NCBI RefSeq assembly: GCF_030156785.1
Contig: NZ_JASGLW010000004.1
Span: 62,001 to 126,000 of the forward strand
Origin: Methanohalophilus sp.
Lineage (GTDB): Archaea; Halobacteriota; Methanosarcinia; Methanosarcinales; Methanosarcinaceae
Direction of reading: 5' to 3'
DNA length: 64,000 nucleotides
The notes beneath the pieces are model-generated. The model did not search any database, was not told the origin of the DNA, and was given only the letters and a program-made list of their open reading frames with translations. Made by a program: the position numbers and the translations under genes. The first letter of the stretch is position 1. Every line of letters starts with the position of its first letter. Positions 14,368 through 55,929 of the stretch are shown here, piece after piece.

Positions 14368-15135
14368 TTATTGGATAGCCTTCAGGAATTCCACGCACCG
14401 TTTTCCCTCGTCAAGATCTTTCATTTCGGTTACCATAAACCCGTCAAAATGCTCTAATTTCTCAAAGACATTTTTCCAGTTAATATTCCCGTCTCCCAAG
14501 GGTAAATGTTCGTCATGCTTTCCCTTGTTATCGTGAATGTGACAATGCGCAATTATGTCCTTGCATCCGTCCAGAAACTCATCAACAAACCCAGTGGTGT
14601 TTGCATGACCTATATCCAAAGTCATTTTCAGGTTTTCAGTCCCTGCTTCATCAATAATTGAAAGTATGTCTTCAGGAGTCTTTCCAAAAACCATGGGGAT
14701 TTCCGGCATGTTTTCGATGGCAATCAATATACCATGTTCTTCACCGCTTTTTGCAAGTTCCTGCAGGGACTTTACACAAACCATACGTGCTTTTTCGGGA
14801 ACCTGTGATCCGTAAGGGGAAAGATATCCGGGATGTACAACGGCAAGTTCGACAATGTTGGCAGCATTGCTTAATGCCTGTTTCATCTGTCTCATTACTT
14901 CCTGATGGAGATTTTTGTTGAGCCCTGCGAGGTTCATATCAGAAAATGGCAGATGCAGTGTTATTCCAAGATCTGTCGTTTCAGCAATGTCTTTTACTAG
15001 CAGGATATTTTCATGAGTAAGTTCCTGTTCTCCCTCATGAACTATTTCCCATCCCTCATAACCGATGTCCTCCAGAAGGTATGCCCAATCGAACACCTCT
15101 CTGCATGAAGCCCTGCTTGAAAAACTCAATCGCAT
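14368..15135 (-). CDS. Xylose isomerase-like TIM-barrel protein
   Basis: 255-aa sugar-phosphate isomerase/epimerase-like (AP endonuclease 2 family) barrel. Metal-site residues are visible in VVHPGYLSPYG, IAIENMPE (Glu), LDIGHANTTG (Asp, His), IAHCHIHDNKGKHDEHLPLGDG and FMVTEMKD. The family includes isomerases, epimerases and endonuclease IV, and the substrate cannot be told from sequence. Eleven nt behind the UPF0201 gene and in the same direction, probably one operon from 16450 down to 14368. Confidence 0.85.
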   Translation of the reverse strand: MRLSFSSRASCREVFDWAYLLEDIGYEGWEIVHEGEQELTHENILLVKDIAETTDLGITLHLPFSDMNLAGLNKNLHQEVMRQMKQALSNAANIVELAVVHPGYLSPYGSQVPEKARMVCVKSLQELAKSGEEHGILIAIENMPEIPMVFGKTPEDILSIIDEAGTENLKMTLDIGHANTTGFVDEFLDGCKDIIAHCHIHDNKGKHDEHLPLGDGNINWKNVFEKLEHFDGFMVTEMKDLDEGKRCVEFLKAIQ

Positions 15136-15146
15136 ATTTACACCTT

Positions 15147-15572
15147 TTAATCATCAGGCATCGGATTTTCAAAAATAGGTTTTCCTTCTTCTGTAGGTGG
15201 TGCAAGCCAGTCTATTACTTCTTCAAGCTTTGCTTTTGAATCATCAAGAATGCGAACATTGATATTTCCCAGTACCCCTTCATCTGCTGGGAAGCTGGCT
15301 TTTCCTGCATAAGCAGCCTGTTTGTTTAGCTTGAACGTGAATGAAGTCTTGTTAGCTTCAAGGTTTTCCATCATTGGCATTCTGGCACTGTCAAGTATTT
15401 TCTCTTTTCTGAGCATTTTGTGCAACTTTAGAAGGGAATCGAGTTTTCCATATCCCTGGATTTTGTCATCAAAAACTTCCAGTTTTACTGTAAGGACATT
15501 CTCTATGGCTTTGCGTACTTTCTCCACATCTTCAGTGGGAAAAAGTTCAGCCCATACTTCAACAGTTACCAT
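15147..15572 (-). CDS. UPF0201 family RNA-binding-like protein
   Basis: 141-aa archaeal protein of the UPF0201 (DUF54) family, which resembles ribosomal protein L5/RNA-binding folds. Seen: VTVEVWAELFPTEDVEKVRKAI at the front, SLLKLHKMLRKEKILDSAR in the middle, SFTFKLNKQAAYAGKASF and the acidic end. Start ATG shares its A with the upstream stop codon (TAATG), so it is translationally coupled to the UPF0200 gene; this pair is conserved in archaea. Function unknown. Confidence 0.85.
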   Translation of the reverse strand: MVTVEVWAELFPTEDVEKVRKAIENVLTVKLEVFDDKIQGYGKLDSLLKLHKMLRKEKILDSARMPMMENLEANKTSFTFKLNKQAAYAGKASFPADEGVLGNINVRILDDSKAKLEEVIDWLAPPTEEGKPIFENPMPDD

Positions 15573-16114
15573 TAAAGGTTCTCCAGTGTATTTCGGATCT
15601 TGTCTCTTAAATCAGAAAGTGTAGATGTATTTTCAATTGTAATATCGGCGGCTTCAATGGCCTTGGCAAGACCCCACTTCATTTCTCTTTCGTCTCTGCG
15701 TTTGAGGTCTTCAAGGCTTACCATATCATCATCGCTGCGCTTTCTTTGCAGGACACGCTCAAAACGCATCTTAAGAGGTGTATCGAGGAAAATAAGGAAA
15801 AAATCATCACCAAACTCTTCCTTGAATAATTTGACTTCGGCGATTCCCCTGATTCCGTCAACAACTACAATCCTGTCATCGGCTTTTCTGATTTTCGGAA
15901 TGCAACGAATTGCAACTGCATCCATTCCCTCCTTCGCACGAAGATCATTCGCCACTGCCCCAGTGTTTGCATCTGTGGGTTCAAGTCCACGGCGTTTAAC
16001 TTCTTCGCGGATGACATCACCCATGTTGATGACCTCGATTCCCATTTCACGTATAACTTTTGATGCTTCTGATTTACCGGAAGCCGGCATGCCGACAAAT
16101 GCGATAATTTTCAT
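15572..16114 (-). CDS. UPF0200 nucleotide kinase-like protein
   Basis: 180-aa P-loop protein related to adenylate/dephospho-CoA kinases. The Walker A loop is GMPASGKSE at residues 8-16; VVVDGIRG is the second conserved segment, and RDEREMKWGLAKAIEAAD is the lid-proximal helix. Archaeal genomes place it next to UPF0201. Substrate unknown. GGAG 9 nt before ATG 16114. The upstream gene (with in-frame TAG) ends 21 nt before it if the TAG is read through. Confidence 0.88.
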   Translation of the reverse strand: MKIIAFVGMPASGKSEASKVIREMGIEVINMGDVIREEVKRRGLEPTDANTGAVANDLRAKEGMDAVAIRCIPKIRKADDRIVVVDGIRGIAEVKLFKEEFGDDFFLIFLDTPLKMRFERVLQRKRSDDDMVSLEDLKRRDEREMKWGLAKAIEAADITIENTSTLSDLRDKIRNTLENL

Positions 16115-16135: not shown

Positions 16136-16450
16136 TCAGTGAATTTTTGATTTTACCAGTATCCCGGATACAAGCTCAAGAAGTTCTATCAGTATTGATT
16201 TTGCTTCTTCTACATCATCAACTCTTCTAATAATTACCTAACCGCTGCTGAAAAACTTCATCTCAACGTTTTTGAGGCTGATTATCAACATATCAAGCTT
16301 TTTTGAATAAGAACACACAAATCCATCTTTGTCCTTCAGCTTTTCATACAGAAGAGCAAATTCCGGTTTTTCGTCAAGGTACGCAATGACCCTGAATTTA
16401 TTCGGGTCAGACGGGCAGGGAAGCACCTTTTCTATCCTGTTGATTTTCAT
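16136..16450 (-). CDS. Conserved small protein with in-frame UAG (candidate pyrrolysine at residue 71)
   Basis: Frame from ATG 16450 reads MKINRIEKVLPCPSDPNKFR through NVEMKFFSSG (70 aa), then TAG at 16238-16240, and continues without a break as VIIRRVDDVEEAKSILIELL and ELVSGILVKSKIH to TGA 16136-16138. The total of 104 aa ends 21 nt before the next gene of the operon. The post-TAG stretch is amphipathic and charge-balanced, hence looks coding. Two cysteines (C12, C46) are near the front. In Methanosarcinaceae UAG can encode pyrrolysine, and nearly every other gene here ends in TAA or TGA. Alternatives: a Lys (AAG) to TAG mutation giving a shortened 70-aa protein. Function unknown. Confidence 0.6.
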
Positions 16451-16701: not shown

Positions 16702-17109
16702 ATGAGAAAAATAAGAGCGCATCACCTGCTTTGTATGCAGGGATTCCAGGGATATGGATACAGTCCTGATTTTGTTGAAAGGATGAAACATATCATTGAA
16801 GTCATGTATTCCGATTCCTCGGATGACGTAGAAATCGTAAGCTGCTGCGATGACATATGTGACTGTTGTCCGCACAACGTCGAAAACGTCTGCCAGAAAA
16901 CAGGTGACAACGGGAAAAATATTCGGGAAACGGATGCGCTGATTCTCAGGAAACTCGGATTCAGGGAAGGCTATTGTGCAAACTTCATGGATCTGATCCG
17001 GTATGTGAATCGGCAGCTTGACAAAGATGACGTGTTGGAAATATGCGGAGAATGTGCATGGAAAGAAAAATGCCTCTGGTATATGAAAAACGTGGGCTTG
17101 AAATATTGA
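16702..17109 (+). CDS. DUF1284 domain protein
   Basis: 135-aa cysteine-rich protein. Starts with the signature RAHHLLCMQGFQGYGYS, followed by CCDDICDCCPHNVENVCQKTG and, near the end, CGECAWKEKCLW; at least ten cysteines could hold an Fe-S cluster or zinc. The family is widespread in anaerobes and its role is not known. No operon partner in front; the dihydrouridine synthase gene begins 37 nt later in the same direction. Confidence 0.85.
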   Translation: MRKIRAHHLLCMQGFQGYGYSPDFVERMKHIIEVMYSDSSDDVEIVSCCDDICDCCPHNVENVCQKTGDNGKNIRETDALILRKLGFREGYCANFMDLIRYVNRQLDKDDVLEICGECAWKEKCLWYMKNVGLKY

Positions 17110-17146: not shown

Positions 17147-18127
17147 ATGGAATTTTTCAATGAGGAAGTTATGAAAGCGGGAAAAACATTTTTTCAGGGG
17201 AATTTAATTCTCGCCCCAATGGCTGATGTTACAAACAGGGCGTACAGGGTACTTTGTAAAAAGTATGGCGCCAGCTATTGCATTACTGAAATGGTGAATG
17301 CAGATGCAATAGTGCACGACAATTCGGGAGCATTTAGGAGAGCTGAAAAAGCTGATAACGAAGGTCCTTACGGGATACAGCTTTTTGGCAGTGAACCGGA
17401 AACAATGAGAAAAGCTGCTGTAATTCTTGTGGATAAGTTTAGACCTTCAAGCATTGATATTAATCTGGGATGCCCTTCACCGGCAATCAGAGGCTGCGGA
17501 GCAGGATCGGCTCTACTGTCATTTCCAGATAAAGTACATTCCATCATAAGTTCAGTTTCTGATGTTATCGACATCCCGGTTACTTCAAAAATTCGTATTC
17601 TTGACAGCATTGATGCGACACTGGAAATTGCCCGCGAAATTGAATCCGCAGGTGCCAGTGCTCTGGCTGTTCATGCCCGCACTGCCAGTATGGGATATTC
17701 AGGGATTGCAAATCACGAATTCACACGTCGGATCTGTGAGGAGGTTTCAATTCCTGTTATTGCAAACGGAGACATCGTAAATGGCCAGACAGCAGCAGAT
17801 GTGCTTGAATATACCGGTTGCCATGCTTTGATGATAGGGAGGGCTGCACTGGGTGACCCTGAAATATTCCATCGAATAAAATGTTATCTCAAAAATGGTG
17901 AAATTGTTCAGACGCCGTCCTTTGAAGAGAAACTGCTCTGCCTTTCAGAATATTTCCAGTTGCTTGAGGAGTTTGATCTTATGTCCCATGTGAATTTACA
18001 GGCACATACGGCATGGTTTTTGAAGGGCTTTAGGGGTTCAAGAAAAATACGTTCATCGTTGCAAGGTGTAAGGGATCCTCAGGTAATTCTGGACAATCTT
18101 CGAAGGCTATGCAACAATATACCTTAA
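17147..18127 (+). CDS. tRNA-dihydrouridine synthase
   Basis: Flavin enzyme that reduces uridine in the D-loop of tRNA. 326 aa. FMN-binding barrel segments LAPMADVTNRAYR, QLFGSEPETMRKA, IDINLGCPSPAIRGCGAGSAL (catalytic Cys in GCG, ~residue 114) and IPVIANGDIVNGQTAADVL and HALMIGRAALGDPEIF are all present. A second in-frame ATG lies at 17171, with TGAGGAAGTT before it, and could be the true start (MKAGKTFFQGNLIL); the longer form is listed. Confidence 0.9.
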   Translation: MEFFNEEVMKAGKTFFQGNLILAPMADVTNRAYRVLCKKYGASYCITEMVNADAIVHDNSGAFRRAEKADNEGPYGIQLFGSEPETMRKAAVILVDKFRPSSIDINLGCPSPAIRGCGAGSALLSFPDKVHSIISSVSDVIDIPVTSKIRILDSIDATLEIAREIESAGASALAVHARTASMGYSGIANHEFTRRICEEVSIPVIANGDIVNGQTAADVLEYTGCHALMIGRAALGDPEIFHRIKCYLKNGEIVQTPSFEEKLLCLSEYFQLLEEFDLMSHVNLQAHTAWFLKGFRGSRKIRSSLQGVRDPQVILDNLRRLCNNIP

Positions 18128-54934: not shown

Positions 54935-55450
54935 CTACCCATGGACCCATTCGATGATAATTCCCATGAGGCCAACGAATATAATTGTCAGTATCAATCT
55001 TGCCACCATGAACTCCGGTCCAAGGAATTGCAGCTCCACAAGTTCCTGGGGCATCTTGATGCATGCCCACGCTGATAGAAAAACGACAATATTTGATATT
55101 CGGGCACCTTTGCTAAGCATTGCAGAGGCCATGGGAAAGGCGACGTAGAGGGGACCAGTAGGGAGGGAACCAAAAAACAGGGCTGTAAAGAAACCCCGCA
55201 TTCCGGAACTTTGTCCAAGGTGCTTGACAACCGCTTTGTCGGAAACAAAGACTGAGAACAGCCCCATGATCACCATCACAGCCGGCAATATAAGCATCAT
55301 CTCAAGCAAGTAACTGGCAAAAACCGCGGTAACCGGGTCTCGTTTTTCGGGGTATGCAGAAAGCAAGGCAAATGTCAGCACCAATAAGACCAGCAGAGCT
55401 ATCACATCAAAAGGGATTCTTACTTTTTGATTTTCATTTTCCTGTTTCAC
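54935..55450 (-). CDS. Half-size permease, second of a pair
   Basis: 171 aa from GTG 55450, which overlaps the TGA of the preceding gene (GTGA). Four to five helices: IALLVLLVLTFALLSAYP, LPAVMVIMGLFSVFVSD, FFTALFFGSLPTGPLYVAFP, ISNIVVFLSAWACIKMPQEL and the end ARLILTIIFVGLMGIIIEW. Resembles one half of UPF0718 permeases; the preceding gene is the other half. Ends in TAG, the only ordinary TAG stop I found; a TGA follows two codons later. Confidence 0.75.
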   Translation of the reverse strand: MKQENENQKVRIPFDVIALLVLLVLTFALLSAYPEKRDPVTAVFASYLLEMMLILPAVMVIMGLFSVFVSDKAVVKHLGQSSGMRGFFTALFFGSLPTGPLYVAFPMASAMLSKGARISNIVVFLSAWACIKMPQELVELQFLGPEFMVARLILTIIFVGLMGIIIEWVHG

Positions 55451-55929
55451 AGTATCATTCCCATGATCAAAGCTATCATTATGGCAATGCAAAAACTGAT
55501 CCCGTTCCTTAGAAGCGCCATCTTTCTGCCCATTTCCCTTATTTCAAGAGGTAGTGTGACCATGCCTACCATGGTGAGTGTTGTGATGAATACAGCGGCA
55601 ATAGTCACAGTGGCTCCTGCATCAAGCAGTGATGCTGTTAAGGGAAAGGATATCAGGGCAGGGATATGCAGGAAGGAACCTATAACTGCTACCATCATGA
55701 CAGCATTGATACCGGACTGCTCGCCTATGAGCATTGATATCCGTGCAGGAGGTATCAATCCAAGCAACAATCCTATGAATACTATTATAGCCAGGATTGT
55801 CGGCATTATATGTATGAATGAGTTAGCGGTTTTGATGAGTGCCTCCTTTGTCCTCTCTCTGTCATGATGGTATGCATAGACCAGGCTTATGAGTGCGAAA
55901 GCATTGATGAATAAGGAGGTATCGATCAT
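55447..55929 (-). CDS. Half-size permease, first of a pair
   Basis: 160 aa from ATG 55929 (MIDTSLFINAFALISLVYAY). Helices include MPTILAIIVFIGLLLGLI, MMVAVIGSFLHIPALISFPL and VTIAAVFITTLTMVGMVTLP. The conserved GxxLHIPALISFP loop is typical of UPF0718-like permeases. Overlaps its partner; together they would form a full transporter. Substrate unknown; context suggests metal or metalloid. Confidence 0.75.
   Translation of the reverse strand: MIDTSLFINAFALISLVYAYHHDRERTKEALIKTANSFIHIMPTILAIIVFIGLLLGLIPPARISMLIGEQSGINAVMMVAVIGSFLHIPALISFPLTASLLDAGATVTIAAVFITTLTMVGMVTLPLEIREMGRKMALLRNGISFCIAIMIALIMGMIL

What the first reader, a model, noticed from the sequence alone, without database searches (positions are those of the whole stretch)
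16136..16450. In-frame UAG in a small conserved operon gene: candidate pyrrolysine protein
Seen: 70 codons, TAG (16238-16240), then 33 more in-frame sense codons with coding character, then TGA 21 nt before the next gene. Of about 70 gene ends I read, only one other is TAG (54935-54937). Knowledge: Methanosarcinaceae decode UAG as pyrrolysine, and such genomes avoid TAG stops. Inference: this gene makes a 104-aa protein with pyrrolysine at 71. It is not a methylamine methyltransferase, so it would add to the small set of other proteins with this residue.
Basis: partly seen in the sequence, partly recalled or inferred. Interest (0 to 1): 0.8.

Follow-up and report, generated by a model that had tools for sequence, protein, structure and literature searches.

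The report
TBP-fold protein with probable pyrrolysine
[quoted passage not shown] it adds a likely member to the short list of pyrrolysine proteins outside methylamine metabolism.

Summary
The genome carries tRNA-Pyl(CUA)-pylS-pylB-pylC-pylD-mtbA and an mtmB with one internal TAG. A second species of the genus has the same gene in the same place, 70% identical, with TAG at the same codon. The 29 codons after the TAG that both share differ by 10 residues where neutral drift predicts 16.9 (19 of 50,000 runs as low). Thirty TAG-free relatives run through the site with Q (15), K (11), R (3) or N (1). No start codon follows the TAG. Read through, the chain models as one TBP half-fold (pLDDT 85.5); stopping would remove its last strand and helix. 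In a 19% sample of this genome two further genes are probably read through TAG: endonuclease Q, before a conserved tail, and a hydantoinase-A-like gene. I read residue 71 as a tolerated replacement of Lys/Gln, not a catalytic residue. Gene and TAG occur in 2 of 8 genomes of the genus. New member of a known kind.

The parts
16136..16450 (-). TAG-interrupted gene; 104 aa if TAG is read as pyrrolysine; single TBP-like half-fold
   Evidence: translation; model; fold match to TBP; alignments
16238..16240 (-). in-frame TAG, codon 71; Q, K, R or N in 30 homologues; TAG in G005
16139..16237 (-). 33 sense codons after the TAG: last beta strand and last helix; no ATG, GTG or TTG among them
15572..16114 (-). 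next gene, P-loop kinase-like (AAA_17/AAA_18); 88% identical in G005
15147..15572 (-). PF01877 RNA-binding protein, PRK00447-like (122 bits, below that model's cut-off of 149)
14368..15135 (-). AP_endonuc_2 TIM-barrel protein
16702..17109 (+). divergent DUF1284 gene, beside the TAG gene in G005 too and not found at this place in the other 6 genomes of the genus
17147..18127 (+). tRNA-dihydrouridine synthase (dus)
54935..54937 (-). the only other TAG at a called gene end in the window (ArsP-like permease); TGA two codons on

Best explanation
The UAG at codon 71 is a sense codon. Charged tRNA-Pyl, made by the genome's own pylTSBCD genes, inserts pyrrolysine there and translation continues to the TGA, giving a 104-residue protein with one TBP-type repeat. 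Shown: the pyl genes, the conserved TAG, the selection on the codons after it, the uninterrupted homologues, and a good model of a half-TBP fold in which residue 71 opens the last strand. Inferred: (a) that the residue is Pyl and that this is the main product; (b) that it arose by a single-base change from a Lys or Gln codon (AAG or CAG to TAG) in the common ancestor of G000 and G005, and is tolerated at the hairpin rather than needed for catalysis, in the manner published for tRNA-His guanylyltransferase; (c) that the protein is a small regulator that pairs with itself or a partner to complete a TBP-like saddle. Inference (c) rests on the fold and on relatives fused to an ArsR-type HTH and an Fe-S domain; it is the weakest step.
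For: tRNA-Pyl with CTA anticodon, PylS, PylB, PylC, PylD and MtbA in a row on G000:C9, the five proteins all over their curated cut-offs; G005 also has tRNA-Pyl, PylS and PylB. Positive control: own mtmB matches all 450 profile positions with one TAG inside. Orthologue in G005 with TAG at the same codon and the same neighbours; both halves are found separately there at about 70% identity. Codons after the TAG: dN/dS about 0.19, against 0.84 and 0.53 in the two shifted frames; 8 of 26 residues differ against a neutral mean of 14.3 (P 0.0003), or 10 of all 29 shared codons against 16.9 (19 of 50,000 runs). Of the homologues whose loci I read at the site, 30 of 30 have a sense codon: Q 15, K 11, R 3, N 1 (29, L061). 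Order-wide scan of 185 genomes at E<=1e-8: 62 matches in 56 genomes, only the G000 and G005 genes have an internal TAG. No start codon in the 33 codons after the TAG. Model of the whole chain: pLDDT 85.5, pTM 0.77, last strand 71-77, last helix 80-100. The 14 best Foldseek matches are TBPs or TBP-containing complexes by title, TM 0.58-0.64 on the query. Other genes here also need TAG read as sense: endonuclease Q keeps its SLFDF tail beyond a TAG that is CAG in G005, and the hydantoinase-A N-terminal domain spans a TAG.
Against: No protein or ribosome data. The coding score of each half is weak alone (3.6 and 6.8). The scan for TAG-joined coding halves is not specific by itself: the same scan with TAA or TGA as sense codon gave 20 and 13 hits (in-frame neighbouring genes, by my reading) against 3 for TAG, so the TAG hits count only with their homology. 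The gene is missing from 6 of 8 genomes of the genus, so it is dispensable, and none of five neighbours of the TAG gene was found beside the TAG-free relatives searched. Selection after the TAG is looser than before it (0.19 against 0.08), from few codons with nearly saturated synonymous sites. The TBP matches are weak in formal terms: below Pfam's cut-off, no Foldseek match at E<=0.001 (best 3.2e-3), and in the PDB sequence search RecA fusions and myosins rank above TBP (0.0012). Residues 97-104 of the model have pLDDT under 50, and the model was computed with Lys at 71, not Pyl.
Confidence: 0.86

Rival explanations
1. Competition at the UAG makes the gene a sensor of pyrrolysine supply: with charged tRNA-Pyl a folded regulator forms; without it release at UAG gives a 70-residue fragment lacking the last strand and helix, which is degraded. 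(This overlaps the best explanation; it adds a function to the codon.)
For: The TAG is kept in two species; truncation would remove strand 71-77 and helix 80-100; relatives are fused to HTH and Fe-S domains. A review reports carbon-source-dependent UAG decoding in Acetohalobium (PMC8211752, section 6 read).
Against: The neighbours are not methylamine genes. Other genes in the same genome also carry TAG, including the DNA repair enzyme endonuclease Q, for which a Pyl switch makes little sense. Two species sharing a codon is also what plain inheritance gives. No unusual RNA fold after the TAG (z -0.97).
Confidence: 0.08
2. The TAG is a plain stop; the gene is a recent pseudogene, or the 70-aa fragment is the functional protein.
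For: The gene is absent from 6 of 8 genomes of the genus.
Against: The frame after the TAG is conserved between two species under selection; homologues continue through; the genome has the full Pyl system; a 70-aa product would be an incomplete fold.
Confidence: 0.05
3. UAG is read through, but mainly with another residue (Lys or Gln) by mischarging or near-cognate decoding.
For: The ancestral residue was probably Lys or Gln.
Against: A dedicated tRNA-Pyl with CTA anticodon and its synthetase are present.
Confidence: 0.02
4. The TAG is a sequencing or assembly error.
For: None found.
Against: Same codon in the genome of another species.
Confidence: 0.005

Closest known systems
tRNA-His guanylyltransferase (Thg1) of Methanosarcina with pyrrolysine by neutral evolution (Heinemann et al. 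2009; the paper is not held; known here from mentions and citations seen)
   Same: Non-methyltransferase gene in a Pyl-decoding methanogen with an in-frame UAG.
   Different: Different protein; here the TAG is shared by two species and no expression has been shown.
Putative Pyl proteins of 'Ca. Methanomethylophilus alvus' (16 besides methyltransferases; PMC4153887, passages seen)
   Same: Genome with few TAG stops and several TAG-interrupted ordinary genes.
   Different: Different order of methanogens; the table rows shown (part of the 16) do not name a TBP-like protein.
'Pyl code' archaea in which TAG is consistently read as pyrrolysine (Kivenson et al., Science 2025; recalled from memory, not found by searches)
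   Same: TAG acts mainly as sense codon; many non-methyltransferase proteins (recalled).
   Different: I could not check whether this organism or this gene is in that work.
TATA-binding protein (PF00352)
   Same: Fold of one repeat.
   Different: One repeat, not two; below Pfam cut-off. TBP proper presumably lies elsewhere in the genome (not searched).
HTH_ArsR + TBP-like + Fe-S fusion proteins of the same family of genomes (e.g. L014)
   Same: Homologous middle domain (E 2.8e-10 for L014; domains).
   Different: Have HTH and Fe-S domains and no TAG.

Membership tests
Pyrrolysine-containing protein | In-frame UAG inside a continuous conserved reading frame | tested here: met
Pyrrolysine-containing protein | Host has tRNA-Pyl, PylS and PylBCD | tested here: met
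   own genome; in G005 tRNA-Pyl, PylS, PylB, PylC and PylD not tested there
Pyrrolysine-containing protein | Residue at UAG shown to be pyrrolysine | not testable with these tools
   needs mass spectrometry or structure
Methylamine methyltransferase (MtmB/MtbB/MttB) | Match to the family models | tested here: not met
   104 aa; no such match at E<=0.1 in Pfam or NCBIfam
TATA-binding protein (PF00352) | Score over Pfam gathering cut-off | tested here: not met
   17.3 bits against 22.9
TATA-binding protein (PF00352) | Two tandem repeats forming a saddle | tested here: not met
   one repeat of 104 aa
TATA-binding protein (PF00352) | TBP repeat fold | tested here: met
   14 best Foldseek matches are TBPs or TBP-containing complexes by title, rmsd 1.9-2.7; best E 3.2e-3
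Genome with TAG mainly as sense codon | TAG stops rare and several genes need TAG read through | tested here: inconclusive
   296,002 bases (19% of genome): 248 called genes, 5 end in TAG; 3 of those 5 (mtmB, hydantoinase-A-like, endonuclease Q) continue beyond it by homology. pylB and an 81-aa ORF still end in TAG, as does the permease at 54935, which fell out's list

The most novel reading that the evidence does not exclude
A natural pyrrolysine gauge: a one-repeat TBP-fold regulator that folds only when charged tRNA-Pyl is plentiful, linking methylamine status to transcription through a kept UAG codon.
Probability: 0.08. Interest if true: 0.8.

Novelty: new member of a known kind. Interest (0 to 1): 0.5.

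Why it matters
A 2021 review lists only some transposases and Thg1 as known pyrrolysine proteins outside methylamine methyltransferases (PMC8211752, section 6); if the recalled 2025 proteomics paper is right the set is larger. This gene is a good test case because the TAG survived the split of two species whose seven other compared proteins are 63-90% identical, the site is placed in a structural model, and truncation should be obvious. With endonuclease Q and the hydantoinase-A-like gene it also says that standard gene callers will cut or miss proteins in this genome, and that TAG has drifted toward an ordinary sense codon here.

Tried and rejected
PF21360 (PylC-like_N) gave no match in the own genome, which alone would have suggested a missing pylC; the NCBIfam PylC model matches strongly, so that lead was dropped. 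A downstream RNA structure (PYLIS-like) was looked for and is no better than shuffles (z -0.97). The PDB sequence search put artificial RecA fusions and myosins above TBP; I treat these as repeat or composition artefacts, which I did not test. The codon-score scan for TAG-joined halves was checked with TAA and TGA as controls and is not specific alone. Translations used the wrong strand for minus-strand loci; one search repeated them. In one search the printed codons of six of the eight endonuclease Q rows (L142-L147) were taken at a wrong motif and are ignored; the protein tails of all eight stand. The neutral simulation used 26 of the 29 codons that both species share after the TAG; one search repeated it with all 29.

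Full report
WHAT IS THERE. The frame lies on the minus strand, from ATG at 16450 to TGA at 16138..16136, with TAG at 16240..16238 as codon 71. It ends 21 nt before a P-loop kinase-like gene (15572-16114), followed by an RNA-binding protein and a TIM-barrel protein; upstream and divergent are a DUF1284 gene and dus. Codon-score calling in the window gave 53 genes: 27 TGA, 25 TAA, 1 TAG. The finding's gene was not among these calls because each half scores low alone.

CAN THE CELL READ UAG? The own genome (G000; 1.55 Mb, 19 contigs, 94.55% complete) has on contig C9 tRNA-Pyl with anticodon CTA, then PylS, PylB, PylC, PylD and MtbA, the five proteins all over their curated cut-offs. mtmB on the same contig matches all 450 positions of its profile with one TAG inside. 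PylS is in 8 of 8 genomes of the genus; G005 also has tRNA-Pyl.

IS THE TAG PART OF A GENE? In a search of 60 genomes (the own one and relatives), 25 had a match at E<=0.001, and only the G000 gene and that of G005 (same genus) had an internal TAG. G005 has TAG at the same codon, 70% protein identity, and the same order DUF1284 / gene / kinase / RNA-binding / TIM barrel. At the kinase locus of the other 6 of 8 genomes of the genus, tblastn finds dus but neither half of the gene nor DUF1284 (sequences). Genome-wide, five of these six have no match and G007 has only a HTH + TBP-like + Fe-S fusion. Family-wide, 75 of 111 genomes have some match at E<=0.001; order-wide at E<=1e-8, 56 of 185 genomes with 62 matches, again only these two with an internal TAG. 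Thirty TAG-free single-domain homologues whose loci were fetched were read at the site: Q 15, K 11, R 3, N 1 (29, L061); one of them (L067) ends early, at 87 residues. AAG and CAG are one base from TAG. None of the five neighbours of the TAG gene was found beside the TAG-free relatives among the loci searched.

SELECTION. Between G000 and G005 dN/dS is about 0.083 before the TAG (70 codons) and about 0.19 after it (26 codons); in the two shifted frames after the TAG it is 0.84 and 0.53. Synonymous sites are near saturation, so the ratios are rough. In 20,000 neutral runs with the same 24 base differences 14.3 residues changed on average against 8 observed, P 0.0003. That run left out the last 3 of 29 shared codons; with all 29 the result is 10 observed against 16.9, 19 of 50,000 runs as low. 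The 33 codons after the TAG have no ATG, GTG or TTG.

STRUCTURE. AlphaFold2 on 30 aligned sequences (with Lys at 71) gives pLDDT 85.5, pTM 0.77: two strands, helix, four strands, long helix, residue 71 opening the last strand; residues 97-104 are under pLDDT 50. The 14 best PDB matches are TBPs or TBP-containing complexes by title, E 3.2e-3 to 1.5e-2, TM 0.58-0.64 on the query; none reaches E 0.001. It is one repeat, not the two of TBP, and below Pfam's TBP cut-off. In the PDB sequence search the best TBP (2z8u, E 0.0012) ranks below RecA fusions and myosins. Some relatives carry this domain between an ArsR-type HTH and an Fe-S domain (L014). The TAG pair forms a 100/100 clade on a long branch (1.3); its place near the own-genome TAG-free paralogue L028 is in an unresolved fork.

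IS IT ALONE? In 296,002 bases of G000 (window, L033, L034, L120-L129) 248 genes were called: 140 TAA, 103 TGA, 5 TAG. The permease at 54935 is not among these 5, having dropped out of that run's gene list. Three of the five continue beyond the TAG by homology: mtmB; a hydantoinase-A-like gene whose N-terminal Pfam domain spans the TAG and whose best counterparts in 6 genomes of the genus, 61-62% identical, have GAA at that codon; and endonuclease Q (matches PfuEndoQ 5zb8, E 5.7e-119), where G005 has CAG at the TAG position and a tail ending SLFDF is present in 8 of 8 genomes. That this tail is a PCNA-binding motif is recalled knowledge. The two others are pylB and an 81-aa ORF. A scan for TAG-joined halves that both look coding gave 3 hits (mtmB, hydantoinase-A-like, the finding), missing endonuclease Q; with TAA or TGA as the sense codon it gave 20 and 13, so it is no proof alone. 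In this genome TAG is thus often sense, which supports reading this one as sense, and also makes tolerated drift the simplest account.

HOW IT WORKS. UAG is decoded by Pyl-tRNA in competition with the release factor; no special RNA signal is evident (z -0.97), in line with a review stating that none is required in E. coli (PMC8211752, section 6). Residue 71 replaces Lys/Gln at a hairpin. I see no sign of a catalytic use. A regulatory role of the protein is an inference from fold and fusions.

COMPARISON. Known: Pyl in methyltransferases, some transposases and Thg1 (PMC8211752, section 6), predicted in 16 further proteins of 'Ca. M. alvus' (PMC4153887, passages) and in ranked clusters (PMC3639795, abstract, section 14 part 1 of 2). 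PMC9723677 (passages) gives under 6% UAG stops as usual for Pyl archaea, in keeping with 5 of 248 here. In these texts I saw no TBP-like protein, but I read parts only and supplementary lists were not open to me. The 2025 'Pyl code' paper is recalled only; searches did not list it. Hence 'new member of a known kind'.

Noticed in passing
L033:8312-9364 (pylB) and L082-L089, L098-L119: pylB itself ends in TAG just before or overlapping the pylC start in 8 of 8 genomes of the genus and in 14 of 22 further family genomes (8 TGA, 0 TAA), although TAG stops are rare in G000. Read-through would add a tail from another frame of pylC; a feedback of pyrrolysine on its own synthesis is possible. These 30 were the best-scoring loci among 105 genomes with a match. 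Whether this is in print was not settled (listing of one search only).
   Followed up: partly
L128:6746-7975 (G000:C7): Endonuclease Q with TAG shortly before its C-terminal tail QSSLFDF; CAG in G005; a tail ending SLFDF in 8 of 8 genomes. Probable further Pyl protein.
   Followed up: yes
L034:4115-6043 (G000:C9): Hydantoinase-A-like gene with in-frame TAG at codon 91; of the matches listed in 8 genomes of the genus only the G000 one holds a stop. It lies near the TAG-free paralogue of the finding's gene, and in L054 and L056 a similar-looking gene is also next to the TBP-like gene (by eye).
   Followed up: partly
window 54935-55492 (-): ArsP-like permease ending in TAG with a TGA two codons on, the only TAG-ended called gene of the window.
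   Followed up: partly
L014, L015, L017, L030, L031: Relatives about 268 aa long with the TBP-like domain in the middle; L014, the one tested, has HTH_ArsR-type and Fe-S domains. Some genomes have two copies about 1 kb apart, such as G017. No function found here.
   Followed up: no
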